Source: Galbibacter orientalis DSM 19592
GTDB taxonomy: Bacteria > Bacteroidota > Bacteroidia > Flavobacteriales > Flavobacteriaceae
Assembly: GCF_000260115.1 (NCBI RefSeq)
Contig: NZ_JH651379.1
Location: 1,678,501-1,742,500 of the forward strand
Length of the DNA: 64,000 nucleotides
Reading direction: 5' to 3'
Of the stretch, positions 50,625-64,000 are shown piece by piece; the stretch's first letter is position 1; every line of letters starts with the position of its first letter. The position numbers were made by a program, and so were the translations under genes. Below the pieces are notes generated by a model. The model was given only the letters and a program-made list of their open reading frames with translations, had not been told where the DNA came from and did no database searches.

Positions 50625-51563
50625 TTATCTAGCATCTATTATTTCTGTAAGTTCTATGGCACAACCCCAAGCTACTGTAAAACCAGCGCCACCATGTCCG
50701 TAGTTATGAAAAATAGCAGGATATTGACTATCAAACTCAAAACGCACCTCACTTCTTTTAGGGCGGAGACCTACAATTTCTTCAATTATTTCAGGCTGCT
50801 TTTGGGATAAACTAGTTTGTAAAAGTCTTTTAATTATGAGATCTGTATCGCTTTTTTCTATATTTAGATTCCAATCGTCTAAATAGTCTGTACCCCCAAC
50901 AACACAATCTTCACTTCGATTAATAACATAACTCAGAGCACCTTTTTTTGTGGAGTCGGCACATGAAGGAATATTCATTTTTTTACAACGTAAAATTTGT
51001 CCGCGCATAGGCTGTAGATCCTTGTCGTTACAGAGCTTTTTTGCTCCTAATCCTGTGCAGTTTATAATAAACCCATCTAGCTTTGATGCTTCTTCTAAAC
51101 TGGAAATTTCATGCTGTAAAAACGTTCCGTCAGATTCTATAAATCGTTGAAAAAGATATGGTAAATATAATAATGGTTCTGCTAATGGAACTCTAGAGAT
51201 AAAAGCCTTTTGTATCCCTTTTGGTAATTCCTCTTTAGAAGCTTTTTTGGTGGTTCCTTCGGGCATTTTTAGTGTCCAATCGATATTACTATTATCGTTA
51301 TAAGCAGTTATAAACGGAATAAATGATACTCCATTTTTAGGTTTAATATCACGTTGGTATTCTTGATAAGCGAGTGTAGCCCAATGATTTGTTTTTTCTT
51401 TAGGATAAATTTCAAATGGAAACCAAATGGCTCCCACTTTGCTAGACAAGGTTTTATTAAAATGTTCCTTAGCTATAATGGTAACTTTAAAACCTTTCTC
51501 TTGTAGTTTAATGGCGGTGGTTAGTCCTACAATTCCACAGCCGATAACTGTTATAGATCTCAT
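50625..51563 (-). CDS. FAD-dependent D-amino-acid oxidase
   Basis: A 312-residue DAAO-family flavoenzyme that would oxidise D-amino acids to keto acids, ammonia and peroxide. FAD site GCGIVGLTTAIKL opens the protein; SSKVGAIWFPF, GLRPKRSEVRFE (with the Arg that binds the substrate carboxylate) and the family signature NYGHGGAGFTVAWGCA follow. It lacks a signal peptide, so it acts in the cytoplasm. It overlaps the upstream amidohydrolase by 4 nt and is the last gene of the operon. Confidence 0.88.
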   Translation of the reverse strand: MRSITVIGCGIVGLTTAIKLQEKGFKVTIIAKEHFNKTLSSKVGAIWFPFEIYPKEKTNHWATLAYQEYQRDIKPKNGVSFIPFITAYNDNSNIDWTLKMPEGTTKKASKEELPKGIQKAFISRVPLAEPLLYLPYLFQRFIESDGTFLQHEISSLEEASKLDGFIINCTGLGAKKLCNDKDLQPMRGQILRCKKMNIPSCADSTKKGALSYVINRSEDCVVGGTDYLDDWNLNIEKSDTDLIIKRLLQTSLSQKQPEIIEEIVGLRPKRSEVRFEFDSQYPAIFHNYGHGGAGFTVAWGCAIELTEIIDAR

Positions 51564-53017
51564 AGTTGTATTTCGCTTTTTATAGCTTTTCCTGGGAATG
51601 TATTAACTTGTAACTCCCCATTTTCAATAAGTATTTTTCCGTTTATAATTACATAGTCCATCCCTGATGATCTTTCAAATCCGCTAGCATAAGTAGCATT
51701 GTCCTTTACCTTGTTTTGATCAAATAGTAATATGTCTGCGTAACATCCTTTTTTAATTCTACCTCTTAACTTCATTTCGGGAACTATAGATTCCAAGACC
51801 TTTGCGGGCATGAGGGTCATTTTTTTTATAGCAGTATTGATACTTAATAGTTTTTTTTCATTTACATATTCACGAATAACTTTAGAAAAGGTTCCAGATG
51901 ATCTTGGGTGTCCTAAAAGGGAATAACCACCGCCATCACTAGCAATCATTGTAGCGTTAGAAGTTATTGCACTGTCAATCCAACTTTCTTTCATCATATG
52001 CACAATTACAGAACCTCCTTGTTTTCGGTACATTTCAAAAGTCTTTGCTGTTAATCGTTCTCCAGTTTCAATCCATTGCAAGTCTTGGTAAGTACAACCT
52101 AATCGCTCTTGCCAACCTTCATTGAAAATAGCAGATCCAATTTCGGTATTTCCAGCAGTGTATGGATATAACTCGGTAGTAATAGGAAAGCCTAAGGCCT
52201 GTGCTTTTTCAACCGCTTGTAAGCAGAAATCAATATCCTTACGCGCCATGCTTGGTAAGTGGCAAAGGTGAAGCTGTGTTTTATTTAAAATGGCATCGCT
52301 TATTGCTTGCTGAAAGGCAATGGCGCCGCCTTCGCGAATGTGTGAAAAAACGGGTAAGTTGTGTTCTCCAGCAAAAGCATATACATCGGCAATTTCTTTG
52401 ATAGATGCGTTTGGTAAATAGCCAACTGGAATGCCAATACCTATTGCACCATCGTTTAGAGCATCTTTGAGCTTATTTCTTAGTGTTGGAAATTTGTTTT
52501 CGGTTAAAGCTAATGAGGCAGCAGAATCTTTTAGCTCTTCATAAATAGTATTGTAAACCCTGTCGCTATTAGAAATAACTTTGTTTCTGTAAGCTAATTG
52601 GCAGGCAGAGGCGCCAAAATTGACTAAAGCTTTTTCTTTTCTAGCTTCATAATATTGTTTAAGAGTGTCAATCCCAATTTCTAATTCTAATGCTGTTGTA
52701 ACGCCATCAAATACTTGATATTCATTCTCTTTATTGGTTTGCCCATGGGCATGCAAGTCTATAAATCCAGGGGATAATATTTTTCCGCTGCCATCTATAA
52801 CTTTTTCGCCTAGGAGTTTATGAGTACTTATTTCTGCTATTTTATCATCAGAAATAGCCAAATTTAATACTTGGTCAGTGTTGGTTTCTGGGTTGATTAC
52901 TCTGGCGTTTTCAATAACAATATCATAGGTAATAGATGCGTTTTCTTTTTTTTGAGAACAAGAAACAATAAATACGGTAAGAGTTAAAAAAATAATATTT
53001 TTAATAATAGTACGCAT
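51560..53017 (-). CDS. Amidohydrolase, N-acyl-D-amino-acid deacylase-like lipoprotein
   Basis: A 485-residue metal-dependent hydrolase. The N-terminus (LTLTVFIVSCSQ) is a lipoprotein signal, so it is exported. The amidohydrolase fold shows the metal HxH (FIDLHAHGQ), later histidines (FSHIREGG, LCHLPS) and the aspartate region ASDGGGYSLLGHPRSSGTF typical of D-aminoacylase / dihydroorotase relatives. Cleavage of N-acyl-D-amino acids or related cyclic amides is likely; the D-amino acid oxidase gene overlapping its 3' end supports this. Confidence 0.85.
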   Translation of the reverse strand: MRTIIKNIIFLTLTVFIVSCSQKKENASITYDIVIENARVINPETNTDQVLNLAISDDKIAEISTHKLLGEKVIDGSGKILSPGFIDLHAHGQTNKENEYQVFDGVTTALELEIGIDTLKQYYEARKEKALVNFGASACQLAYRNKVISNSDRVYNTIYEELKDSAASLALTENKFPTLRNKLKDALNDGAIGIGIPVGYLPNASIKEIADVYAFAGEHNLPVFSHIREGGAIAFQQAISDAILNKTQLHLCHLPSMARKDIDFCLQAVEKAQALGFPITTELYPYTAGNTEIGSAIFNEGWQERLGCTYQDLQWIETGERLTAKTFEMYRKQGGSVIVHMMKESWIDSAITSNATMIASDGGGYSLLGHPRSSGTFSKVIREYVNEKKLLSINTAIKKMTLMPAKVLESIVPEMKLRGRIKKGCYADILLFDQNKVKDNATYASGFERSSGMDYVIINGKILIENGELQVNTFPGKAIKSEIQL

Positions 53018-53020
53018 AAC

Positions 53021-54796
53021 TTATTTTTTTGTAGCAGTAAAGGTTCCATTGGGTTCATGTAGAATTAGTTTTTCATCTTTAAATTCTGCTTTATAGCCAG
53101 ATAATCCTTTGATTATAAATTCATTTTCTTTTACAGGAACTAATGTGTATTCGGGTTGTTGGGGTACAAGAAGTGTTAAGTTTTTGTTTTTTAAGGTGAC
53201 TTTTAATTCTGTGCCCGAAAGGAAATAGCTTCCTTCATATTTCTGTAATTTAGTTTCAGAGATAGCAACTTCATTTGGGCTTCTCTTAAAATAAATAGGA
53301 TCTAAGGTTGGTTCTAATTTTAAATAGACTCCGTCTATATCTCCTAAATCATTAGTTTTAAAATTGAAATTAAAGCCTATACCTTCTTTTAAATCAATTT
53401 TATTATTTTTTATTAAATGAGGTTTAAAAACATCGTAATGGGTATGTTTTAAATATGTTTTTTCTCTAGTAAAATTTGCCCAAAGTGAATCGTTTTCAGC
53501 TTTAACCTTAATTGTGCCATAACCTTTGTTGCTATATTCCCCAGTATATTCTGCCAAATTATGGGTGGGGTTTGTATTAGAAATTTCACTTTCTTCTTCA
53601 GTCTTTTTCTTTTCTTTTTGTTGTTTCTTAAGTTCTCCTACTTTTTCATTATAATAAGCTACCCAGTCTGTCTTTTTTAAATTTAGAATTTCATCAGAAA
53701 TTTCATTCCTTACTAAAGTAGGTAATGCAGAGCCATCTTGGTTTGTTAGCACTACAATTCCTATTCCGTCGGATGGAAAAAATGAGACATTAGCAGCAAA
53801 TCCATCAATATTACCACCATGTTCTAGTCGATAGTGACCTTTATACGAAGAAGTAAACCAAGCATACCCATAACTATTTAAATGTTGTGCTGGAAATTTC
53901 TTATCGGCTATACCATTACCTACTAACATTAACGGATTTATAGCTTTTTCAACATATTGTTGAGGTATAACTTGTTTCCCGTTAAATTTGCCTTCGTTTA
54001 ACCAAATCATTAGCCAGTTTGCCATTTCTTTTGCACTACTATTAATACTTCCTGCAGGGCTAATAGCTGCAATATTATAGTAGGGGGTAAGTTTGTTGGT
54101 AGAGAAATTCTCTAATGTATAACCCTTGGATGCATTTGCAGATTTTTCTAATTCTTTAATAGATAAATTAGAAGTAGACATCTGTAGGGGTTTAAAAAAA
54201 CGTTCCCTTATATTATCTTCCCAACTATTTCCGGTTAGTCTTTCTGCAATTATACCTTGCGCCAAGTACATAAAATTATTATAGTACCATTGTTCTCTTA
54301 TTCCTGTAAAAGGTTTGTGGTATTGTACACGAGCTAGTAGGCTGTCTTTGTTTTCCGTAGGGAATAAATACCATGAAAAATCATGTCTAGGTAAGCCTGT
54401 TCTATGGCTCACCATATCTAATATGGTAATGTTATTGTTTAAATCGTTATTATAAAATTCTAGTTCTGGGATATATTTTTTGGGACTATCAGTAAACTTC
54501 AATCCTTTTTCATCTTCCAGAATTCCTAATAAAGCAGTTGTAAAAGCTTTTGAGGAAGAGCCAATGGCAAAAAGGGTATTTTCATCTACTTTTAATTTAT
54601 TCTCTAAATCTTTATATCCAAATCCTTTAGCGTAAATTACTTTTCTTCCTTGAACAATAGCCACAGAAAACCCTACGGTCTGTGTAGTTTCTTGCAGAAT
54701 TTTTAGTTTTTTATCAAGTTGTTTTTCGTTGAGATTGGTCTGAGCAAAAAGAGTGGTGCTAATAAAGACTGCTAGAAGTAAAATTTTTGTTTGCAT
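53021..54796 (-). CDS. Serine hydrolase, class C beta-lactamase family, with DUF3471
   Basis: A 591-residue exported enzyme of family S12. A signal peptide (about 1-18, ending LFAQ) is followed by the SxxK motif in GSSSKAFT, the YxN motif (YYNNFMY) and an HGGN motif (LEHGGNIDGF) replacing KTG. A charged linker (KKQQKEKKKTEEE) and a C-terminal DUF3471 lipocalin-like domain follow. S12 includes D-aminopeptidases and DD-peptidases; with the two downstream genes 3 nt away and overlapping, release of D-residues from peptides is plausible. Confidence 0.85.
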   Translation of the reverse strand: MQTKILLLAVFISTTLFAQTNLNEKQLDKKLKILQETTQTVGFSVAIVQGRKVIYAKGFGYKDLENKLKVDENTLFAIGSSSKAFTTALLGILEDEKGLKFTDSPKKYIPELEFYNNDLNNNITILDMVSHRTGLPRHDFSWYLFPTENKDSLLARVQYHKPFTGIREQWYYNNFMYLAQGIIAERLTGNSWEDNIRERFFKPLQMSTSNLSIKELEKSANASKGYTLENFSTNKLTPYYNIAAISPAGSINSSAKEMANWLMIWLNEGKFNGKQVIPQQYVEKAINPLMLVGNGIADKKFPAQHLNSYGYAWFTSSYKGHYRLEHGGNIDGFAANVSFFPSDGIGIVVLTNQDGSALPTLVRNEISDEILNLKKTDWVAYYNEKVGELKKQQKEKKKTEEESEISNTNPTHNLAEYTGEYSNKGYGTIKVKAENDSLWANFTREKTYLKHTHYDVFKPHLIKNNKIDLKEGIGFNFNFKTNDLGDIDGVYLKLEPTLDPIYFKRSPNEVAISETKLQKYEGSYFLSGTELKVTLKNKNLTLLVPQQPEYTLVPVKENEFIIKGLSGYKAEFKDEKLILHEPNGTFTATKK

Positions 54797-56199: not shown

Positions 56200-56268
56200 A
56201 CAAGCTTAATTATTCCAGAAAAACATCTTTTTTAAACATTTGGTAACTTAAAGGTAATTTTAAAAACA

Positions 56269-56322
56269 TTACAAATAGTAATTATTTATCGAATTTTACA
56301 TCCATAAATTTACTATTTGTAA
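56269..56322 (+). promoter_or_regulatory. Paired operator-like dyads upstream of the DUF5690 operon
   Basis: TTACAAATAGTAA at 56269-56281 is repeated as its exact inverse TTACTATTTGTAA at 56310-56322, 41 bp apart centre to centre. Each copy is itself a TTAC-N5-GTAA dyad. The second ends 5 nt before the TTG start of the first gene. A close variant (AGTAACTATTAGTAAAC) occurs upstream of susC at 60131-60147. It is a good candidate for the binding site of the XRE-cupin regulator encoded in between. Confidence 0.55.
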
Positions 56323-56327
56323 ACATT

Positions 56328-57617
56328 TTGAAATATACAAAAACAGATATTAAAACATTATTATATGGTTCTTTTGCTGCCTTTGGTACTTACTTTTGTA
56401 TGTATGCCTTTAGGAAGCCATTTACTGTTGCTACTTATGAGGGGCTGAGTTTTTGGGAGGTAGATTATAAAATTATTCTTATAATAGCGCAGGTTCTTGG
56501 ATATATGCTTTCAAAGTTTATTGGGATTAAACTTATTTCAGAACTCAGAAATAATCAGCGTTTATTGCTATTAATAACAATGATTGCAGTGGCAGAAATT
56601 AGCTTGGTGTTATTTGCCGTTGTACCAGCTCCCTATAATCTTGTTTTTATGTTTTTAAATGGACTTCCGTTGGGAGTGATTTGGGGGATTGTTTTTTCAT
56701 ATTTAGAAGGGAGAAAAACTACAGAGATATTGGGAGTAGTATTGTGCTCTAGTTTTATAGTTTCTAGTGGAGCCGTAAAGTCTGTGGGACTTATTTCAAT
56801 GAGGTGGATTGGTGTTAATGAGTTTTGGATGCCTGCGGTGACTGGAGCAATATTTATAGTTCCTTTTTTAATATTCTCTTATCTTTTAGAACGAATCCCC
56901 TCACCAACACCAGAAGATATTTCCTTACGAACAGAAAGAAAACCAATGAGTAAAGTAGATAGGGCTAATTTGATTAAAACCTATTTTTTTCCAATTGTAA
57001 TATTAGTGTTTTTTTATGCGGCTCTTACGGCATTAAGAGATTATAGAGATAATTTCTCTCGAGAGATATGGGATGCATTAGGGCTCAGGGATAGTATAGC
57101 TATTTACACATTTTCTGAGATTCCAATAGCTATTTTAGTGCTTGTTATTTTAGGACTATTTGCTTTTATAAAAAGCAATTTTAGAGTTTTTATTTATTAC
57201 CATTATTTGCTTTTTGGGGGAGCGTTCGTAATAGGGTTGCTTACGGTATTCTATCAATTAGAATTGATTAGCGAAATTTTCTGGATGATAAGCGTAGGCT
57301 TCGGATTATATATATGTTATGTGCCTTTTAATTGTATATTTTTTGACAGAATGATAGCAGCTTTTAGAATTAAAGGAAATGCTGGATTTCTTATTTATAT
57401 AGCAGATGCTTTTGGCTATTTAGGAAGTATTGCCGTGTTGCTTTATAAGAATTTTGGTCAGGGAGGAGTATCCTGGTTAAACTTTTTCATTTATGGATGT
57501 TACCTTATTGCAGCGCTGGGTTGTATTGTTGCTGTGGCTTCTCTAAATTATTTTAAAAAGAAATATAAGTCTTCAGAAAAAAAAATATCACATCTTTTAA
57601 ATATAGCTTATGAATAA
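56328..57617 (+). CDS. DUF5690-family MFS-like transporter
   Basis: A 429-residue protein with about 12 TM helices. The first loop motif YAFRKPFTVA resembles the YxxRKxF segment of organophosphate/phosphate antiporters (GlpT/UhpT), so it may move a phosphorylated or phosphonate compound across the inner membrane; this is an inference from a short motif and from context. TTG at 56328 starts the frame. The end overlaps the FAD oxidoreductase gene by 8 nt, so transport and catabolism are coupled. Confidence 0.8.
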   Translation: MKYTKTDIKTLLYGSFAAFGTYFCMYAFRKPFTVATYEGLSFWEVDYKIILIIAQVLGYMLSKFIGIKLISELRNNQRLLLLITMIAVAEISLVLFAVVPAPYNLVFMFLNGLPLGVIWGIVFSYLEGRKTTEILGVVLCSSFIVSSGAVKSVGLISMRWIGVNEFWMPAVTGAIFIVPFLIFSYLLERIPSPTPEDISLRTERKPMSKVDRANLIKTYFFPIVILVFFYAALTALRDYRDNFSREIWDALGLRDSIAIYTFSEIPIAILVLVILGLFAFIKSNFRVFIYYHYLLFGGAFVIGLLTVFYQLELISEIFWMISVGFGLYICYVPFNCIFFDRMIAAFRIKGNAGFLIYIADAFGYLGSIAVLLYKNFGQGGVSWLNFFIYGCYLIAALGCIVAVASLNYFKKKYKSSEKKISHLLNIAYE

Positions 57618-58773
57618 TATCGAGAAGTATGATCTTGTTGTTATTGGAGGGGGAGTATTGGGGAGTTTTCATGCTTATCATGCCATTAATAAAGGATTAA
57701 AAGTAGCATTAATAGAGAAAAATAAAATACTTCAAGGGGCTACTGTTAGAAATTTCGGACAAGTAGTTCCTTCTGGAATGAACACGAAATGGCAGACTTT
57801 TGGTAGGGAGAGTCTGAAAATATATAAGGAGATTCAATCAAAATTTGATATTTCTGTACGCCAAGAAGGATCGGTTTATATAGCTTCTAATGAGGAGGAA
57901 GTTAAATTATTACACGAGTTAAAAAAAATTAATCAAGCAAATAATTATACGTCCGAATTGTGGACTAAAGAAAAAACAATTAATAATTATGCAGGCATAA
58001 ATGAGGCTTATGTAAAAGAGTCTTTATTCTTTCCTGATGAGGTTTTAGTAGAACCTCGAGTTATGATAAGTAAGCTTCATGCTTATTTACAAACAAAGGG
58101 ATTAGCACTTTTTTCTGGAAAGACAGTGGTAAGAAATGAATCTGTAGGAGAATGTGTAAAAGTATTTACAGCAGACGGAATGGTTGTTACAGCCGAAAAA
58201 GTGATTATTTGTAATGGAAGTGATTTTGAGAATTTATATCCTGAATTATTTTCTGAAAGTGAATTAATAATCTCCAAATTACAGATGATGGCAACCAAGC
58301 CTCAACCATTAAATTATAAAATGAAGGGGGCAATTCTTACGGGACTTTCTATAAGAAGATATGAAGCTTTTTCCGAATGCCCTTCATTTAAAAAGATAAA
58401 AGAAAAAGAATCTTCTGAGAGTTTAGAAAAAAAATGGGGAGTGCATATTTTGTTTAAGCAAGCAGTAGATGGTTCTGTAATTATAGGCGATTCTCATGAG
58501 TATGCATCAGTTAAAGAAAAGGAAAGTTTAGGTTTTGATTTAAATATGAATATAGATCAATTTATTATTGAGGAGGCTAAAAAAATATTCTATTTACCAA
58601 ATTATGCCATTCAGGATAGGTGGTATGGAATGTATTCGCAGTGCAAGGAAAGCGATATTTATTTGAAAACAATAGATAAAAATATTCATATCGTAACTGG
58701 AATTGGAGGAAAAGGAATGACAGGAAGCGCAGGTTTTTCTAAAGAAAATATTAATTCAATTTTTAATTTTTAA
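57610..58773 (+). CDS. TIGR03364-type FAD-dependent oxidoreductase
   Basis: A 387-residue DAO-superfamily flavoprotein. The Rossmann FAD motif IGGGVLGSFHAYHA is at about 12-25; ATVRNFGQVVPSGM just after it is typical of TIGR03364, and GIGGKGMTGSAGFS ends the FAD-binding fold. TIGR03364 members are tied by genome context to phosphonate catabolism and related to glycine oxidases, so oxidative deamination of an aminoalkylphosphonate (giving an aldehyde) is a reasonable role. It lies 8 nt inside the transporter gene's end and 1 nt before the HAD gene. Confidence 0.85.
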   Translation: MNNIEKYDLVVIGGGVLGSFHAYHAINKGLKVALIEKNKILQGATVRNFGQVVPSGMNTKWQTFGRESLKIYKEIQSKFDISVRQEGSVYIASNEEEVKLLHELKKINQANNYTSELWTKEKTINNYAGINEAYVKESLFFPDEVLVEPRVMISKLHAYLQTKGLALFSGKTVVRNESVGECVKVFTADGMVVTAEKVIICNGSDFENLYPELFSESELIISKLQMMATKPQPLNYKMKGAILTGLSIRRYEAFSECPSFKKIKEKESSESLEKKWGVHILFKQAVDGSVIIGDSHEYASVKEKESLGFDLNMNIDQFIIEEAKKIFYLPNYAIQDRWYGMYSQCKESDIYLKTIDKNIHIVTGIGGKGMTGSAGFSKENINSIFNF

Positions 58774-58774
58774 A

Positions 58775-59452
58775 ATGCAAAATAAAATAAAACTTGCCGT
58801 TTTTGATATGGCTGGAACTACAGTGAACGAAGGTAATGTTGTATATAAAACCTTACAGAAAGCAATAAATAATGCAGGGTATAAAGTAGAATTAGACTTT
58901 GTGCTTACACATGGCGCTGGGAAAGAAAAGCATCAAGCTATTAAAGATGTTTTAGAAGAATTAAATGAAGATAAAAGTAAGTCGGATGTTATTTTTGAAG
59001 ACTTCAAAGTATTACTGGATAATGCATACAAAAAATTAGCGGTCAAAGCTTGTAACGGTGTTGAAGAGTTATTTAAATTACTAAAAAGTAACAATATTAA
59101 AGTTGCATTAAATACAGGGTACAATAAAGAAATTGCAACCTTGTTGTTGAATAAATTAAACTGGACAAAGGGAGAACAATATGATGCTTTAATTACTGCC
59201 GATGATGTAATAAATGGAAGGCCATGTCCAGACATGATTTCTAAGGCAATGGAATTAACCAATGTTCTTGAGGCAGATAAGGTGTTAAAGGCTGGAGATT
59301 CTATTATAGATATTGAAGAAGGAAAAAATGCAAACTGTGCAATTACGGTAGGGGTTACTACGGGAGCTCATACAAAAGAGCAATTACTGAGCGCTCATCC
59401 TACTTATGTAGTAGCATCTTTATTAGAATTAAAAGATATATTGCTTAAATAA
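58775..59452 (+). CDS. Phosphonatase-like HAD hydrolase (TIGR03351 type)
   Basis: A 225-residue HAD hydrolase. The nucleophile motif is FDMAGTT (D11), as in PhnX (DxAGT). In the cap region the segment GAGKEKHQAI carries K50 and H53, aligning with the Schiff-base Lys and nearby His of phosphonoacetaldehyde hydrolase (GxxKxxH). Motif III and the acidic motif (KAGDSIIDIEEG) are intact. Cleavage of the C-P bond of phosphonoacetaldehyde or an analogue is plausible. It is the last gene of the three-gene operon and is convergent with the regulator. Confidence 0.85.
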   Translation: MQNKIKLAVFDMAGTTVNEGNVVYKTLQKAINNAGYKVELDFVLTHGAGKEKHQAIKDVLEELNEDKSKSDVIFEDFKVLLDNAYKKLAVKACNGVEELFKLLKSNNIKVALNTGYNKEIATLLLNKLNWTKGEQYDALITADDVINGRPCPDMISKAMELTNVLEADKVLKAGDSIIDIEEGKNANCAITVGVTTGAHTKEQLLSAHPTYVVASLLELKDILLK

Positions 59453-59457
59453 AGGTA

Positions 59458-60024
59458 TTATATAAAGAAGTAAACAACTAGCATTTTAGAAGGTTGTTTA
59501 CTTCTATTTTCTGGTACGTGTGGAATTCTACCATCAAAAAATATGGAATCTCCTTCTTTTAGTAAAACTTCTTCTTCTCCAATAATATAGTAACATTCTC
59601 CTGAAAGAATGTATTTAAATTCAAATGCATCGGTAGTTACTTTTTCTCTTTTAGAATTTGGTTTTACTTCTAAGAGAACTGTTTCAAAACCAAGGGAAGA
59701 AAGTTGTTTGCTAAATATAAAGTTGTAGGTAAAGCCTTCTGCCTCTTCCTCTTTATCAATAGGGGTATTTTCTTCTTTTCTTGAAACAATAAAATTAGCG
59801 CCACTACCTTTTGGTATTCCTTTAAAAAAATCGGTTACTTCAACTTCAAGCGCATTTACTATTTTTATAAATACTGGGAGGGAAGGTATTGTTCTTCCAT
59901 TTTCAATACGAGAAATAAGTCCGCTAGTTACTTCTGCTTTTACAGCAACATCATTAATGGTTTTACCATCATTTTTTCTAATTTCTTTAATTCGCTTACC
60001 AATACCTATAAGATAATCTTCCAT
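59458..60024 (-). CDS. XRE-family regulator with C-terminal cupin
   Basis: A 188-residue regulator: a Cro/CI HTH at residues about 8-62 (IGKRIKEIRKNDGKTINDVAVKAEVTSGLISRIENG) and a cupin sensor domain at about 115-185 (YILSGECYYIIGEEEVLLKEGDSIFFDGRIPHVPEN). Such proteins control nearby amine, amino acid or phosphonate catabolism by binding a small ligand in the cupin. It lies between the enzyme operon and susC, so it probably controls both. It ends 5 nt from the convergent HAD stop. Confidence 0.9.
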   Translation of the reverse strand: MEDYLIGIGKRIKEIRKNDGKTINDVAVKAEVTSGLISRIENGRTIPSLPVFIKIVNALEVEVTDFFKGIPKGSGANFIVSRKEENTPIDKEEEAEGFTYNFIFSKQLSSLGFETVLLEVKPNSKREKVTTDAFEFKYILSGECYYIIGEEEVLLKEGDSIFFDGRIPHVPENRSKQPSKMLVVYFFI

Positions 60025-60059
60025 TTAGTAGAATTTTTTACACCTCAAAATTAAAAGAA

Positions 60060-60185
60060 ATACTGTAAATTATTTACCCTATTTTATGCTTTTGATTCTG
60101 TTATTTATTCAAATTAATGAAAAACAGAAAAGTAACTATTAGTAAACTAAGGTTGTTAACTTTTTGTTAACTGAATTTACAGTAT
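60060..60185. promoter_or_regulatory. Regulatory region between the XRE-cupin gene and susC
   Basis: ATACTGTAAATT (60060-60071) recurs as its exact inverse AATTTACAGTAT (60174-60185). The first overlaps the perfect palindrome GTAAATTATTTAC (60065-60077). Between them lie AGTAACTATTAGTAAAC (60131-60147), similar to the dyads at 56269-56322, and two GTTAAC palindromes (around 60154 and 60165). This density of dyads suggests autoregulation and control of susC. Confidence 0.5.
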
Positions 60186-60234
60186 GATTGCAATGATTTA
60201 ATAGTGCATGTAGTTTAACTTAACTTACCTCTTC

Positions 60235-60242
60235 GATATTTG
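60235..60242 (+). promoter_or_regulatory. Possible -7 element of susC
   Basis: GATATTTG differs from TAnnTTTG only at the first base; the susC ATG is 40 nt further on. No convincing -33 element was found, which would fit a regulated promoter. Confidence 0.35.
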
Positions 60243-60282
60243 CATAACTAAATAACTTAATAAAGTTTACAAATACGAAAAA

Positions 60283-63200
60283 ATGAATAAGCGGAAATTA
60301 TTATGTGTATTTGCGTTCTTCGCATTTATTACAAGTTACTCTCAAACCTTATTTAAAGGGAGTGTATTAGATGAAAATAGCACACCTTTACCAGGTGCAT
60401 CCATTATGATAAAAGGTCAAAATAATGGAGTTGCTACAGATTTTGACGGAAATTTTGAGATAGAGCTCCCCCAAGGCAACGAAATATTGATAATTTCTTA
60501 CGTTGGGTATCTTTCTCAAGAAATTAATTCAGCATTAGAGAATGGAGTAAAAGTTGTTTTACAACCAGATTCTCAACAATTAGATGCAGTGGTAGTAACT
60601 GCTCTAGGTATTGAAAGAGAAAAGAAGTCGTTAGGATATGCTTCTCAAGAACTTGATAGCGACCAAATTAGTTCGGCAAGAGAACCTAATCTATTAAATA
60701 GTATTTCTGGTAAAGTAGCAGGACTTCAAGTAACTAATAGTCCTTCAGGAATTGGAGGGTCTGCTAGAGTTTCTATTCGTGGAGATGCGTCGTTAAATAT
60801 TAATGGAAACTCTCCTTTATTTATTATAGATGGTACTCCTATTAGTAATGAAATAGTTGGATCTTCTGGAGCTGGGACTCAAGATGTGGATTATGGAAAT
60901 GGAGCTGCTGAGATAAACCCAGAGAATATTGAGTCGATGAACGTTTTAAAAGGGCCAGCGGCGGCAGCTTTATATGGTTCTAGAGCGGCAAACGGGGCTA
61001 TCATCATCACAACAAAAAAAGGAACTTCTAAAGATGGAAAAATAGGGGTTACCATAAATACTGGAGTAACAGTAGATAATATTTTAATGTTACCAGATTG
61101 GCAAAATGAATATGGTCAAGGTAATAATCAACAATTCTCTTTTGTAGATGGAAAAGGAGGAGGAATTGCAGATGGTGTTGACGAAAGTTGGGGGCCAAGA
61201 TTAGATACAGGACTTTTAATTCCGCAGTTCGATTCGCCTAGACAAGACGGAACTCGTGGGGGAGATTTAATAAGTAATTCTCCAATTATAGCAACTCCTT
61301 GGGTTTCTAATCCAGATAACACAAAAGATTTTTTTAATACTGGATTTACCAAAACCAATAGTATTTCTATTTCTAAAGCTGGAGATTTAGGGAATATCCG
61401 TTTCAGCTATCAGAATTTTGATCAAGAAGGAGTTGTTCCTAATACAGATTTAGAGAGAAATACATTTAATTTAAGTGCGGGTCTTAATTTAACTGATAAA
61501 GTTAAGGTTAATGCAAATGTAAATTATGTAAAAAGTGATAGTGGCAACAGACCGTCGTTGAGTTATGGAACAGAAAGTATTATGTATCTTTTTATTTGGT
61601 ACGGAAGACAATTAAATACCAATAGTTTAAGAGATTATTGGATGCCAGGGCAAGAAGGCGTGCAGCAGTTTAATTACAATTACAATTACCATGATAATCC
61701 TTTCTTTAATGTATATGAAAATACAAATTCTCAAGACAAAGATCGGGTATATGGAAATGTAAATTTAACCTATGATATTTCCGATAATTGGAAACTGTTA
61801 CTTCGTACAGGACGCGATTTTTACCGAGATTTAAGAGCTAAAAAGAGAGCTTTTAGTACGCAACGTTTTCCGTTAGGATATTATAGAGAAGATAATGTGT
61901 TTTTTGAAGAGATTAATACAGACTTCCTATTGTCATACGATAAAACTTTTAATGAAAAATGGAATGTAAACTTTTCTGTAGGAGCTAATCAACTTAGACA
62001 AAATCAAGAGTACGACCAAACGGTAGCGCCAGAACTGATAAATCCAGGGGTGTATTCTTTTAATAATAATAGAAAACCATTAGAAGTTACTTCCATAGAT
62101 CAAAATAAACGTATTAATAGTGTGTACGGTTTTGCTCGTTTAGCCTATAATAATTATCTGTTTTTAGATATAACAGGAAGAAACGATTGGTCTAGTACGC
62201 TTCCTTCTAATAATAATTCATATTTCTATCCTTCTGTAACATTGAGTACAGTATTTAGCGATATGTTTGTGTTGCCAGAGTTTGTAAGTTTTGCCAAATT
62301 GAGAGCAGCTTATGCAGAAGTTGGTAATGATACAGATCCTTATAAATTATCTAGTTTTTACACCAATGAGAATCCGTTTGGAGAGTATCCGGTGTTAACA
62401 GAATCTTCTTTAATACCAAATGCAAATTTAAAACCAGAGATTACTTCTTCTTATGAATTTGGGGTTGACTTACGCTTTTTTCAGAGTCGCTTAAATATAG
62501 ATGCTACTTATTATAGCTCCTTAACAAAGAACCAGATTATTTCTATTGATGCAGATATTGCTAGTGGTTACGCTAGTAAACTTATCAATGCTGGGGAGGT
62601 TAAAAATTATGGTTTTGAAGCTATTTTAGGAATAACTCCAGTTAGAAATGATAATTTTTCATGGAAAGCAACCTTCAATTTTGCTAAAAACCAAAGTGAG
62701 GTTACAGATTTGGGAGGGGTAGATTATACCTTAACCGAAAGAAATTCAGCTTTTATTCAAGCAAGAGAAGGAGGTTCTATTAGTGCAATTTACGGAAGAG
62801 GATTTCAAAGAGTAGAAGATGAGAATAGCCCGTACTTTGGGGAAATGATTATTGATGCAAATGGAATTCCGTTACGTACAGATGATTTGGTGTATCAAGG
62901 AGATTATGCTCCAGATTATACGCTTGGGTTTCAGAATAGCTTTAGATATAAGGCTTTTGATTTTGGATTTCTATTAGATACCCGCCAAGGAGGAATTGTA
63001 GTGTCTAGAACAAAAACAATTGGAAGTACTTCTGGACAATTAAAGGAAACTTTAGTAGGAAGAGAAACAGGAATTGTTGCAGATGGAGTTGTACAAGTAT
63101 CGGATGGGTTTTATGAACCTAATACTACTAATGTAGATGCTAGAACTTATAATAACAGATATTACGAAAGAGATAATGTGGAGGCTGCAAAATATGATGC

Positions 63201-63444
63201 TTCTTACACAAAACTAAGAGAGGTAACATTGGGGTACACTATTCCTAAGCGCTTTATAAAGCAGTTGCCAATTACAAATGCTAGATTTTCTCTTAGCGGA
63301 AGAAACTTACTTCTGTGGACAGAAAACCCACATTTTGACCCAGAAACAGTAGCTGTTTCGGGAGGGACATTGCAACCTGGAATCGAAAACATGTCGTATC
63401 CAAGTACAAGATCATTCACTTTTAATTTACGAGTAGACTTTTAA
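60283..63444 (+). CDS. SusC/RagA-family TonB-linked outer membrane transporter
   Basis: A 1053-residue outer-membrane protein: a signal peptide (about 1-20, ending SYSQ), a carboxypeptidase-D regulatory-like domain (FKGSVLDENSTPLPGASIMIKG), a TonB box region, the plug with the family signature (LLNSISGKVAGLQV, FIIDGTPI, VLKGPAAAALYGSRAANGAIIITTKKG) and a beta barrel ending FNLRVDF. It forms a pedal-bin importer with the SusD lipoprotein just downstream. In this context the cargo may be a phosphonate-containing glycan, lipid or peptide rather than a plain polysaccharide. Confidence 0.95.
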   Translation: MNKRKLLCVFAFFAFITSYSQTLFKGSVLDENSTPLPGASIMIKGQNNGVATDFDGNFEIELPQGNEILIISYVGYLSQEINSALENGVKVVLQPDSQQLDAVVVTALGIEREKKSLGYASQELDSDQISSAREPNLLNSISGKVAGLQVTNSPSGIGGSARVSIRGDASLNINGNSPLFIIDGTPISNEIVGSSGAGTQDVDYGNGAAEINPENIESMNVLKGPAAAALYGSRAANGAIIITTKKGTSKDGKIGVTINTGVTVDNILMLPDWQNEYGQGNNQQFSFVDGKGGGIADGVDESWGPRLDTGLLIPQFDSPRQDGTRGGDLISNSPIIATPWVSNPDNTKDFFNTGFTKTNSISISKAGDLGNIRFSYQNFDQEGVVPNTDLERNTFNLSAGLNLTDKVKVNANVNYVKSDSGNRPSLSYGTESIMYLFIWYGRQLNTNSLRDYWMPGQEGVQQFNYNYNYHDNPFFNVYENTNSQDKDRVYGNVNLTYDISDNWKLLLRTGRDFYRDLRAKKRAFSTQRFPLGYYREDNVFFEEINTDFLLSYDKTFNEKWNVNFSVGANQLRQNQEYDQTVAPELINPGVYSFNNNRKPLEVTSIDQNKRINSVYGFARLAYNNYLFLDITGRNDWSSTLPSNNNSYFYPSVTLSTVFSDMFVLPEFVSFAKLRAAYAEVGNDTDPYKLSSFYTNENPFGEYPVLTESSLIPNANLKPEITSSYEFGVDLRFFQSRLNIDATYYSSLTKNQIISIDADIASGYASKLINAGEVKNYGFEAILGITPVRNDNFSWKATFNFAKNQSEVTDLGGVDYTLTERNSAFIQAREGGSISAIYGRGFQRVEDENSPYFGEMIIDANGIPLRTDDLVYQGDYAPDYTLGFQNSFRYKAFDFGFLLDTRQGGIVVSRTKTIGSTSGQLKETLVGRETGIVADGVVQVSDGFYEPNTTNVDARTYNNRYYERDNVEAAKYDASYTKLREVTLGYTIPKRFIKQLPITNARFSLSGRNLLLWTENPHFDPETVAVSGGTLQPGIENMSYPSTRSFTFNLRVDF

Positions 63445-63454
63445 TTCAATAGAA

Positions 63455-64000
63455 ATGAAGAAAAATCAATTTATAAAGAAGCTATTTTTAGGGGCTACAA
63501 TGATACTTTCATTAAATGCCTGTACTAAAGATTTTGAAGAAATAAATGCAAATCCTAATTATCCTGAAAAGGCAGCATCAGAATTATTATTGCCAGGGAT
63601 TTTAAGACAAATGTCTTACAATTGGGGTAATATGGGCTGGGAACAAGGCTTTACAGTTGCACAATATGGAGCAAGACTACAGTTTACAAGTGGAGATCGC
63701 TATAATTGGTCGCCAACAGGAAACCCATATAACGATGCCTATGATGCGCTTAGAGATGTTGAGAATATTATAGAATCTACGGTAGGTGTAAAAGGACAAG
63801 AAAATTACTTAGCTGTTGCTTTAATAGTAAAATCTTGGATTTATTCTTACTTAACAGATGCTTATGGAGATGTGCCATACACACAAGCAACAAAAGGAAT
63901 AAGAGAAGATAATATTACACCAGAATTTACACCACAGAGTGAAATTTATGATGGACTAATTACAGATCTTACTGTTGCAAATAATTTATTAAAAGGAGCT
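63455..64000 (+). CDS. SusD/RagB-family lipoprotein, N-terminal part
   Basis: The first 182 codons are in the window and the frame is still open at the edge. The signal ends in a lipobox (LGATMILSLNAC, Cys about residue 21), then comes the SusD-like start (TKDFEEINANPNYPEKA, ELLLPGILRQM) with TPR-type helices (YSYLTDAYGDVPYTQA). It begins 10 nt after susC and would be the surface lid that captures substrate. The form is closest to the SusD-like_2 type. Confidence 0.9.
   Translation, partial: MKKNQFIKKLFLGATMILSLNACTKDFEEINANPNYPEKAASELLLPGILRQMSYNWGNMGWEQGFTVAQYGARLQFTSGDRYNWSPTGNPYNDAYDALRDVENIIESTVGVKGQENYLAVALIVKSWIYSYLTDAYGDVPYTQATKGIREDNITPEFTPQSEIYDGLITDLTVANNLLKGA

What the first reader, a model, noticed from the sequence alone, without database searches (positions are those of the whole stretch)
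56328..64000. Candidate SusCD-fed aminoalkylphosphonate catabolic system
Four kinds of part sit together: an outer-membrane SusC/SusD importer, a DUF5690 inner-membrane transporter with an organophosphate-antiporter-like YxxRKxF segment, a TIGR03364 amine-oxidising flavoprotein, and a PhnX-like HAD that keeps D11, K50 and H53. A cupin-XRE regulator lies between them. No PhnW transaminase and no C-P lyase are seen, so the flavoenzyme would supply the aldehyde for the HAD. Known: these enzyme families cluster with phosphonate genes. Inferred: that SusCD belongs to the system and that the cargo is a phosphonate-bearing macromolecule or N-substituted aminoethylphosphonate.
Basis: partly seen in the sequence, partly recalled or inferred. 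Interest (0 to 1): 0.78.

Follow-up and report, generated by a model that had tools for sequence, protein, structure and literature searches.

The report
Outer-membrane-fed aminophosphonate breakdown locus
A flavobacterium carries a gene cluster that appears to free amino-phosphonate groups from larger molecules outside the cytoplasm, import them and break their carbon-phosphorus bond for nitrogen and phosphorus, and the same comparison gives a likely job to a membrane protein family (DUF5690) of unknown function.

Summary
DUF5690, TIGR03364 flavoprotein and TIGR03351 HAD lie back to back, beside an XRE-cupin regulator and SusCD. The operon runs past the window: SusD, NPP-type phosphodiesterase, metallo-beta-lactamase-fold protein, PbfA ((R)-HAEP ammonia-lyase, 709 bits, cut-off 525), two more phosphoesterases. 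PbfA yields phosphonoacetaldehyde, so the chemistry no longer rests on the flavoenzyme alone. In 346 genomes of the order, DUF5690 and the HAD occur in the same 32. Of 45 Bacteroidota PbfA loci, 39 carry SusCD; of 28 HAD loci without PbfA, 1 does. The 13 PbfA genomes without the HAD all carry PhnA; 0 of 30 with the HAD do. DUF5690 also precedes PhnX-PhnW in Bacteroides and Parabacteroides and has an organophosphate-antiporter-like fold. Corrected: the Schiff-base lysine is K52, not K50. A putative operator recurs upstream of cluster genes. The cargo, a larger molecule bearing AEP or HAEP, is inferred; nothing was assayed. A new variant of the known hydrolytic aminophosphonate pathway.

The parts
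56257..56334 (.). Inverted repeat (25-nt arms 56257-56281 and 56310-56334) overlapping a copy of the conserved site (56312-56327), at the start of the DUF5690 operon: candidate operator/promoter
   Evidence: 84% complementary arms, 28 nt between; 3 mismatches to the 16-mer; 1 mismatch to the core GTATTTGTAAAC; sequence
56328..57617 (+). DUF5690 membrane protein, proposed inner-membrane importer of aminophosphonates, organophosphate:phosphate-antiporter-like MFS fold
57610..58773 (+). TIGR03364 FAD amine oxidoreductase (PbfD type): proposed AEP / N-methyl-AEP to phosphonoacetaldehyde
   Evidence: 397.7 bits, cut-off 285.1; PbfD1 is annotated as TIGR03364 and tested PbfD enzymes make phosphonoacetaldehyde (PMC10590968)
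58775..59452 (+). TIGR03351 PhnX-like HAD hydrolase, D11 in DxAGT, K52 at the Schiff-base position: proposed phosphonoacetaldehyde to acetaldehyde + phosphate
   Evidence: 237.1 bits, cut-off 218.9; K52 aligned with PhnX K53
59458..60024 (-). XRE-cupin transcriptional regulator
   Evidence: PF07883, PF12844, PF01381; present in 29 of 31 HAD loci
60262..60277 (-). Conserved site CGTATTTGTAAACTTT just upstream of SusC: candidate operator
   Evidence: exact in window; core site 76 of 85 times within 350 bp upstream of a cluster gene in 74 loci, permuted cores mean 2.0, max 9
60283..63444 (+). SusC-type TonB-dependent outer-membrane transporter
   Evidence: TIGR04056 675.6 bits, cut-off 368.25
63455..64000 (+). 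SusD-type protein (cut by window end; complete at L009:7456-9036). Same operon continues outside the window: NPP phosphodiesterase with CHB_HEX and PA14 domains L009:9042-10679, MBL-fold protein L009:10687-11949, PbfA L009:11936-13273, purple-acid-phosphatase-like L009:13276-14874, alkaline-phosphatase-superfamily protein L009:14977-16053 (L009 position + 55999 = window position)

Best explanation
It is a two-operon locus for catabolism of aminoethylphosphonates that are bound to larger molecules. Proposed steps: (1) SusD/SusC bind and import an ester of an aminophosphonate (AEP, N-methyl-AEP or (R)-1-hydroxy-AEP on a glycan or lipid head group) [inferred]. (2) A surface or periplasmic NPP-type phosphodiesterase with PA14 and chitobiase-type accessory domains, with an exported MBL-fold protein beside it in about half of the PbfA loci, cuts the phosphonate ester and frees the aminophosphonate; purple-acid- and alkaline-phosphatase-like proteins deal with phosphate esters [inferred from families]. 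(3) DUF5690, an organophosphate-antiporter-like permease, carries the free aminophosphonate inwards, perhaps in exchange for phosphate [association and fold shown, transport inferred]. (4) PbfA deaminates (R)-HAEP, and the PbfD-type flavoprotein oxidises AEP/N-methyl-AEP, both giving phosphonoacetaldehyde [family membership shown, activity inferred]. (5) The HAD, through Schiff-base K52 and D11, gives acetaldehyde and phosphate [residues shown, activity inferred]. (6) The XRE-cupin regulator acts at TATTTGTAAAC sites before both operons [site recurrence shown, binding inferred].
For: PbfA curated HMM 708.9 vs cut-off 525. DUF5690 and HAD in the same 32 of 346 genomes. PbfA in 3 of the 346, all three in this cluster. 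45 Bacteroidota PbfA loci: NPP-type gene in 43, SusC and SusD in 39, PbfA next behind MBL (23) or NPP (20). Back-end swap: 12 Arenibacter and Kriegella keep NPP and PbfA (13 of 13) and mostly SusCD (9 of 13) and DUF5690 (11 of 13), have no TIGR03351 HAD (0 of 13), but PhnA 13 of 13 and PhnW 13 of 13; 30 of 30 others have the HAD and 0 of 30 PhnA. In Kriegella PhnA, PhnY, PhnW and a PgtP/GlpT-like MFS follow PbfA in one run, and Murphy 2021 lists AepP, a GlpT-related AEP permease, in Kriegella (PMC8316502 passages). DUF5690 next to PhnX-PhnW in Bacteroides and Parabacteroides, and to TIGR03364-PhnX in Novosphingobium. K52 invariant. Operator sites. PbfD2 oxidises AEP in an organism without PhnW (PMC10590968).
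Against: No activity, growth or expression data. DUF5690 gives no sequence-level match to solved structures, and hhalign to one AepP-like protein was not significant. 12 of 39 DUF5690 loci outside the order have no recognised phosphonate gene near, and in 3 more the only neighbour is a flavoprotein. Four Arenibacter loci show no SusCD: L077, L079, L101, and L078 at a contig end. No glycoside hydrolase or lipase domain in the own cluster points to the carrier. The HAD scores far below the PhnX equivalog cut-off (106.7 vs 220). 12 of 55 loci with the XRE gene lack the site, and the SusC-side site has no long inverted repeat.
Confidence: 0.77

Rival explanations
1. A general organic-phosphorus scavenging locus (PusCD-like): SusCD, NPP, purple-acid- and alkaline-phosphatase-like proteins target phosphate diesters such as phosphoethanolamine- or glycerophospho-glycans, and the aminophosphonate enzymes are a side branch.
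For: Three phosphoesterase-type proteins plus an MBL-fold protein in one operon; SusCD clusters that are phosphate-regulated are described in Flavobacterium (PMC8812569 passage).
Against: PbfA is next behind the NPP or MBL gene in 43 of 45 loci; SusCD tracks PbfA (39 of 45 vs 1 of 28); the neighbouring regulator is XRE-cupin. Phosphate control itself was not tested.
Confidence: 0.2
2. The cytosolic enzymes are as described but serve free small aminophosphonates that pass porins; SusCD imports something else and is a passenger in the same operon.
For: 27 of 28 HAD loci without PbfA have no SusC-SusD pair in the stretch; AEP and HAEP are small enough for porins (general knowledge).
Against: 20 of those 28 have a 935-969-residue ORF in the same place, which is a TonB-dependent receptor in the two that were scanned; SusCD-NPP-PbfA keep together in 15 named genera with SusC proteins that differ much (about 500 to 1900 bits against the own one).
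Confidence: 0.17
3. The TIGR03351 HAD acts on another 2-oxoalkylphosphonate (for example hydroxyphosphonoacetaldehyde) or a non-phosphonate, and the TIGR03364 flavoenzyme makes that compound.
For: TIGR03351 is distinct from PhnX; the text of TIGR03364 quoted in PMC10590968 suggested HAEP as substrate.
Against: PbfA yields phosphonoacetaldehyde, and PhnA was found in 0 of 30 HAD-bearing PbfA genomes (PhnY was not searched there); the HAD is missing in the 13 PbfA genomes that have PhnY-PhnA.
Confidence: 0.08

Closest known systems
Hydrolytic AEP pathways with PbfA / PbfD ancillary enzymes (Zangelmi et al. 2021, PMC8154272; 2023, PMC10590968)
   Same: PbfA and PbfD-type enzymes converge on phosphonoacetaldehyde, hydrolysed by a PhnX-type HAD; PhnW can be missing, as reported for the PbfD2 host M. 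fucicola.
   Different: HAD is TIGR03351 rather than TIGR01422; DUF5690 in the transporter place; SusCD and NPP/MBL/PAP genes in the operon; XRE-cupin regulator.
PusCD phosphate-utilisation SusCD clusters of Flavobacterium (PMC8812569 passage)
   Same: SusCD in clusters that serve organic phosphorus use.
   Different: Here tied to C-P chemistry and an XRE-cupin regulator; phosphate control not tested.
AepP, GlpT-related AEP permease (Murphy et al. 2021, PMC8316502 passages)
   Same: MFS-fold carrier found in aminophosphonate clusters; a GlpT/PgtP-like MFS holds the transporter place in Kriegella, where that paper reports AepP.
   Different: DUF5690 is a separate family without detectable sequence similarity.
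Teichoic-acid phosphorylcholine esterase (PDB 1wra; MBL fold)
   Same: Nearest solved relative of the cluster's MBL protein by profile (E 3.7e-6); by its name an esterase of phosphocholine on a polymer.
   Different: Weak, two short stretches (the first holds the HxHxDH metal motif), neither significant alone; Foldseek instead ranks the MBL domain of ComEC first (model pLDDT 66).

Membership tests
Hydrolytic aminophosphonate (AEP) catabolism | HAD phosphonoacetaldehyde hydrolase with DxAGT and Schiff-base lysine | tested here: met
   K52 aligns with PhnX K53; K in 52 of 52 rows. The role of K53 itself is recalled.
Hydrolytic aminophosphonate (AEP) catabolism | Enzyme that makes phosphonoacetaldehyde (PhnW, PbfA, PbfB, PbfC or PbfD) | tested here: met
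   By family: PbfA NF049939 708.9 vs 525; TIGR03364 397.7 vs 285.1. PhnW itself: no match at E 1e-20.
Hydrolytic aminophosphonate (AEP) catabolism | Phosphate released from an aminophosphonate | not testable with these tools
   needs enzyme or growth assay
PhnX equivalog (TIGR01422) | score above curated cut-off | tested here: not met
   106.7 vs 220; over the cut-off of TIGR03351 (237.1 vs 218.9)
PbfA | score above curated cut-off of NF049939 | tested here: met
Organophosphate:phosphate antiporter (OPA) MFS, for DUF5690 | MFS fold closest to OPA members | tested here: met
Organophosphate:phosphate antiporter (OPA) MFS, for DUF5690 | phosphate-binding arginines (GlpT R45, R269; recalled) | tested here: inconclusive
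   R28-K29 invariant in the 26 rows of A2, but RR in several copies outside the order; the aligned range (model 1 to GlpT 18) would put R28 on R45 if ungapped; R236/R239 invariant but not mapped
Polysaccharide utilisation locus (PUL) | SusC-SusD pair | tested here: met
Polysaccharide utilisation locus (PUL) | carbohydrate-active enzymes (GH/PL) in the cluster | tested here: not met
   no GH or PL Pfam domain in the eleven cluster proteins scanned; only CHB_HEX_C, PA14 and a Rha78A-like Ig domain
PusCD (phosphate-starvation SusCD) | regulation by phosphate | not tested
   no expression data; no Pho-box search was made
C-P lyase pathway | PhnJ | tested here: not met
   0 of 10 genomes incl. own; E. 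coli control rings

The most novel reading that the evidence does not exclude
A phosphonate-utilisation locus in the style of a PUL: Bacteroidota shave aminophosphonate head groups (AEP, N-methyl-AEP, (R)-HAEP) off glycans or lipids outside the cytoplasm with a dedicated NPP/MBL set, import through SusCD, and hand the free phosphonate to DUF5690, an aminophosphonate:phosphate exchanger shared by marine and gut Bacteroidota. This would imply that HAEP-bearing polymers are a common substrate of marine flavobacteria.
Probability: 0.5. Interest if true: 0.8.

Novelty: new variant of a known kind. Interest (0 to 1): 0.63.

Why it matters
Bacteroidota are leading degraders of polymers in the sea (general knowledge), but how they reach C-P-bonded phosphorus is little described. 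In the held open library no paper holds aminoethylphosphonate with SusD and phosphonate, none holds it with TonB-dependent and phosphonate catabolism, and none holds DUF5690; five hold phosphonate, SusC, Bacteroidetes and aminoethylphosphonate together, of which I saw passages of two and the listing of three. If right, the locus (a) links SusCD-type uptake to phosphonate catabolism, (b) gives a function to DUF5690 and a direct test of it, also in gut Bacteroides where it precedes PhnX-PhnW, and (c) predicts that (R)-HAEP, on whose natural abundance information is limited (first isolated from Acanthamoeba polysaccharide, PMC8154272 passage), is a regular component of polymers that flavobacteria eat.

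Tried and rejected
K50/H53 as catalytic pair: rejected. Before that alignment I took the K50-to-M change seen in most loci of genus g31 for loss of the catalytic lysine; K52 is kept there, so it is not.

DUF5690 by sequence: hmmsearch of its profile against PDB sequences gave nothing, hhalign against one AepP-like protein was not significant; only the fold comparison was informative.

Canonical PhnX in Arenibacter: no TIGR01422 match over the cut-off in 14 genomes. PEP mutase: none in 10 genomes at E 1e-20 (no control genome was over that cut-off, so the absence is less firm). The 0 of 30 for PhnA rang in no control, but the same model rang in 13 of 14 genomes. PhnW was searched in only 7 of the 30 HAD-bearing PbfA genomes, plus G000: none over the cut-off, one weak match (G387, 205 bits vs 360.8). 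One of the 13 PhnW matches has a stop inside (G348).

MBL protein fold: model of low confidence (pLDDT 66); Foldseek finds ComEC's MBL domain first; function left open.

In the 45 and the 30 they are counted. L091 and L098 are short contigs, not tested for HAD or PhnA genome-wide. L060's DUF5690 was missed by my ORF caller but placed. L213's DUF5690 was masked by an antisense ORF and is counted as linked by hand (PhnW and PhnX follow it). In one search, G629 (below the cut-off) and a second weak match in G719 were not fetched. One plasmid hit of four (H3) was not read.

Limits of the tallies: genes were called by a simple longest-ORF script, so starts and overlaps are approximate; labels are best phmmer matches to the own proteins. 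HAD stretches ran about 6.5 kb upstream to 13 kb downstream of the HAD, PbfA stretches 10 kb either side, so 39 of 45 against 1 of 28 is not a fully matched comparison. The HAD/PhnA exclusivity rests on one genus plus one species against the rest: one or two swaps rather than 43 independent cases. The operator motif was found in the same sequences on which it was counted.

Papers: PMC10590968 (outline, section 8, part 1 of section 15, passages); PMC8154272, PMC12366243, PMC8316502, PMC8812569 (passages only); the others in search listings only.


Full report
What is there. Profiles confirm DUF5690 (PF18943, 562.5 bits), a TIGR03364 FAD oxidoreductase (397.7 bits, cut-off 285.1), a TIGR03351 'PhnX-like' HAD (237.1, cut-off 218.9), a cupin-XRE regulator and SusC. 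DUF5690 and FAD overlap by 8 bp and the HAD follows after 1 bp. The genome is held (window = G000:C1:1678501-1742500), so I read on past 64000: SusD; an NPP-type (PF01663) protein with chitobiase-type and PA14 domains and, by eye, a lipoprotein-like leader; an MBL-fold protein (no Pfam match; MBL metal motifs invariant in 15 rows); [quoted passage not shown] a purple-acid-phosphatase-like metallophosphoesterase; an alkaline-phosphatase-superfamily protein. From SusC to the metallophosphoesterase the genes are 10 bp or less apart or overlap.

The HAD. A profile of 19 of these HADs hits B. cereus PhnX structures at E 2.3e-30 and aligns invariant K52 with PhnX K53; the spacing D11-K52 equals D12-K53 (41). 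In a joint alignment of 46 HADs and 6 PhnX proteins the K52 column is K in 52 of 52, and the K50 column varies. That K53 is the Schiff-base residue is recalled knowledge.

Conservation in the order. Among 346 genomes TIGR03351-type HADs (E 5e-41 or better) occur in 31, plus a partial one in G335; DUF5690 occurs in 32, exactly these genomes, broken in G335. PbfA occurs in 3 of 346 (G000, G133, G143), all within this cluster. In 31 HAD loci, DUF5690-FAD-HAD is contiguous in 27 and an XRE-cupin gene lies in the stretch in 29. Where PbfA is missing (28 loci) the outer part differs: 20 have an ORF of 935-969 residues in place of SusCD, a TonB-dependent receptor in the two scanned (L041, L049; the rest by length and place), and in 20 of all 31 loci there is a smaller NPP-type match, with Laminin-G and DUF4983 domains in the two scanned (L041, L053).

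Conservation around PbfA. A scan of one-per-species genomes gave 47 loci, 45 of them Bacteroidota: Arenibacter, Zobellia, Maribacter, Mangrovimonas, Pricia, Euzebyella, Flavobacterium, Lutibacter, Kriegella and others. In the stretches held, mostly 10 kb either side: NPP 43 of 45, SusC and SusD 39 of 45, MBL 23, PAP 30; the gene next upstream of PbfA is MBL (23, overlapping in my calls by 14-86 nt), NPP (20) or SusD (2). SusC and SusD together occur in 1 of 28 HAD loci that lack PbfA. So SusCD goes with the PbfA-NPP module. Flank limits and contig ends cause several of the misses.

A natural back-end swap. Twelve Arenibacter species and Kriegella keep NPP and PbfA (13 of 13), SusCD in 9 and DUF5690 in 11, but have no TIGR03351 HAD (0 of 13 at E 1e-30); all 13 have PhnA and PhnW, with PhnY beside PhnA. 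The other 30 PbfA genomes tested have the HAD (27 in the stretch, 3 outside it) and no PhnA (0 of 30). In Kriegella SusC, SusD and a Laminin-G protein are followed by NPP-PbfA-PhnA-PhnY-PhnW-MFS-flavoprotein; Murphy et al. report AepP, a GlpT-related AEP permease, in Kriegella (PMC8316502 passages), and the MFS here is PgtP/GlpT-like below those families' cut-offs, so that it is that AepP is my inference. A 2025 paper says that the pbfA-phnY-phnA combination is only found in Proteobacteria (PMC12366243 passage); Kriegella is a counter-example. The HAD thus takes the place of the phosphonoacetaldehyde-consuming PhnY-PhnA pair, and the NPP-PbfA front end, mostly with SusCD, belongs with aminophosphonate catabolism whichever back end is used. 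Phylogenetically this is only one or two swaps.

Regulation. The core GTATTTGTAAAC (up to 1 mismatch) occurs 85 times in 74 loci; 76 lie within 350 bp upstream of a cluster gene (45 loci); 40 permuted cores gave on average 15.7 sites and 2.0 upstream, at most 63 and 9. The motif was found in these same sequences, so this is not an independent test. Of 55 loci with an XRE-cupin gene in the stretch 43 have such a site; of 19 without it, 2: against the reading, 12 loci have the gene and no site. In the window the full 16-mer (up to 3 mismatches) has three matches, no more than chance expects in 64 kb (mean 2.26); but two of the three sit at the two operon starts, 56312-56327 and 60262-60277 (exact). 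The first lies inside a 25-nt-arm inverted repeat; no comparable repeat was found at the second.

Mechanism. Shown: gene content, order, family membership, catalytic lysine, co-occurrence, swap, fold. Inferred: substrate binding by SusCD, ester cleavage by NPP/MBL, transport by DUF5690, enzyme activities, operator binding. The NPP keeps the H and D residues expected of the two-metal site invariant in 17 rows (D39, D183, H187, D233, H234, H241, roles recalled). PbfD2 of M. fucicola oxidises AEP only about 4-fold less well than N-methyl-AEP, in an organism apparently without PhnW (PMC10590968), which fits a genome with no PhnW hit. The MBL's weak profile match to teichoic-acid phosphorylcholine esterase hints at head-group removal from a polymer, but rests on two short stretches.

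Verdict. The enzyme families are known; the SusCD feeding, the phosphoesterase module, the DUF5690 carrier and the XRE-cupin control make it a new variant. The cargo remains the open question.

Noticed in passing
window 50625-54796 (-): Three abutting genes: DAO-family FAD oxidase, PRK09061-type amidohydrolase (474.8 bits, cut-off 340) and a class-C-beta-lactamase-like serine hydrolase; perhaps D-amino-acid or N-acyl-D-amino-acid use.
   Followed up: no
L051, L053-L065 (HAD gene): The residue at position 50 of the HAD is M instead of K in 14 of 17 loci of genus g31 (unnamed), all with K52 kept.
   Followed up: yes
G335 contig 16, 113152-115034: DUF5690 in two pieces with a stop and the HAD only partial: a decaying copy of the core.
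   Followed up: no
L185, L187, L188, L206, L209, L211 (and L199): A clade of stand-alone DUF5690 proteins (motif FGFRKS[FY] in six of seven) without recognised phosphonate neighbours; three genomes carry both kinds: possibly another substrate.
   Followed up: partly
   Followed up: partly
plasmids records NZ_OY725756.1, NZ_OY725933.1: Records called plasmids bear chromosomal-type genes (glycine--tRNA ligase in one, lepB and dapB in the other); probably chromosome fragments.
   Followed up: no
L049:5542-11219: Next to XRE: TonB receptor, PhoD-like phosphatase and zinc-dependent dehydrogenase, another variant of the outer part.
   Followed up: no
L093:16123-17364: In Lutibacter sp. B1 the TIGR03364 enzyme is replaced by a sarcosine/N-methyltryptophan-oxidase-like flavoprotein (below those models' cut-offs) beside the HAD.
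   Followed up: partly
L085 (Kriegella aquimaris): PbfA, PhnA and PhnY in one run in a Bacteroidota genome, a combination that a 2025 paper gives as found only in Proteobacteria.
   Followed up: partly
L010:5279-7587: IS21-type transposase pair (IstA/IstB-like, judged by eye) about 10 kb downstream of the locus.
   Followed up: no
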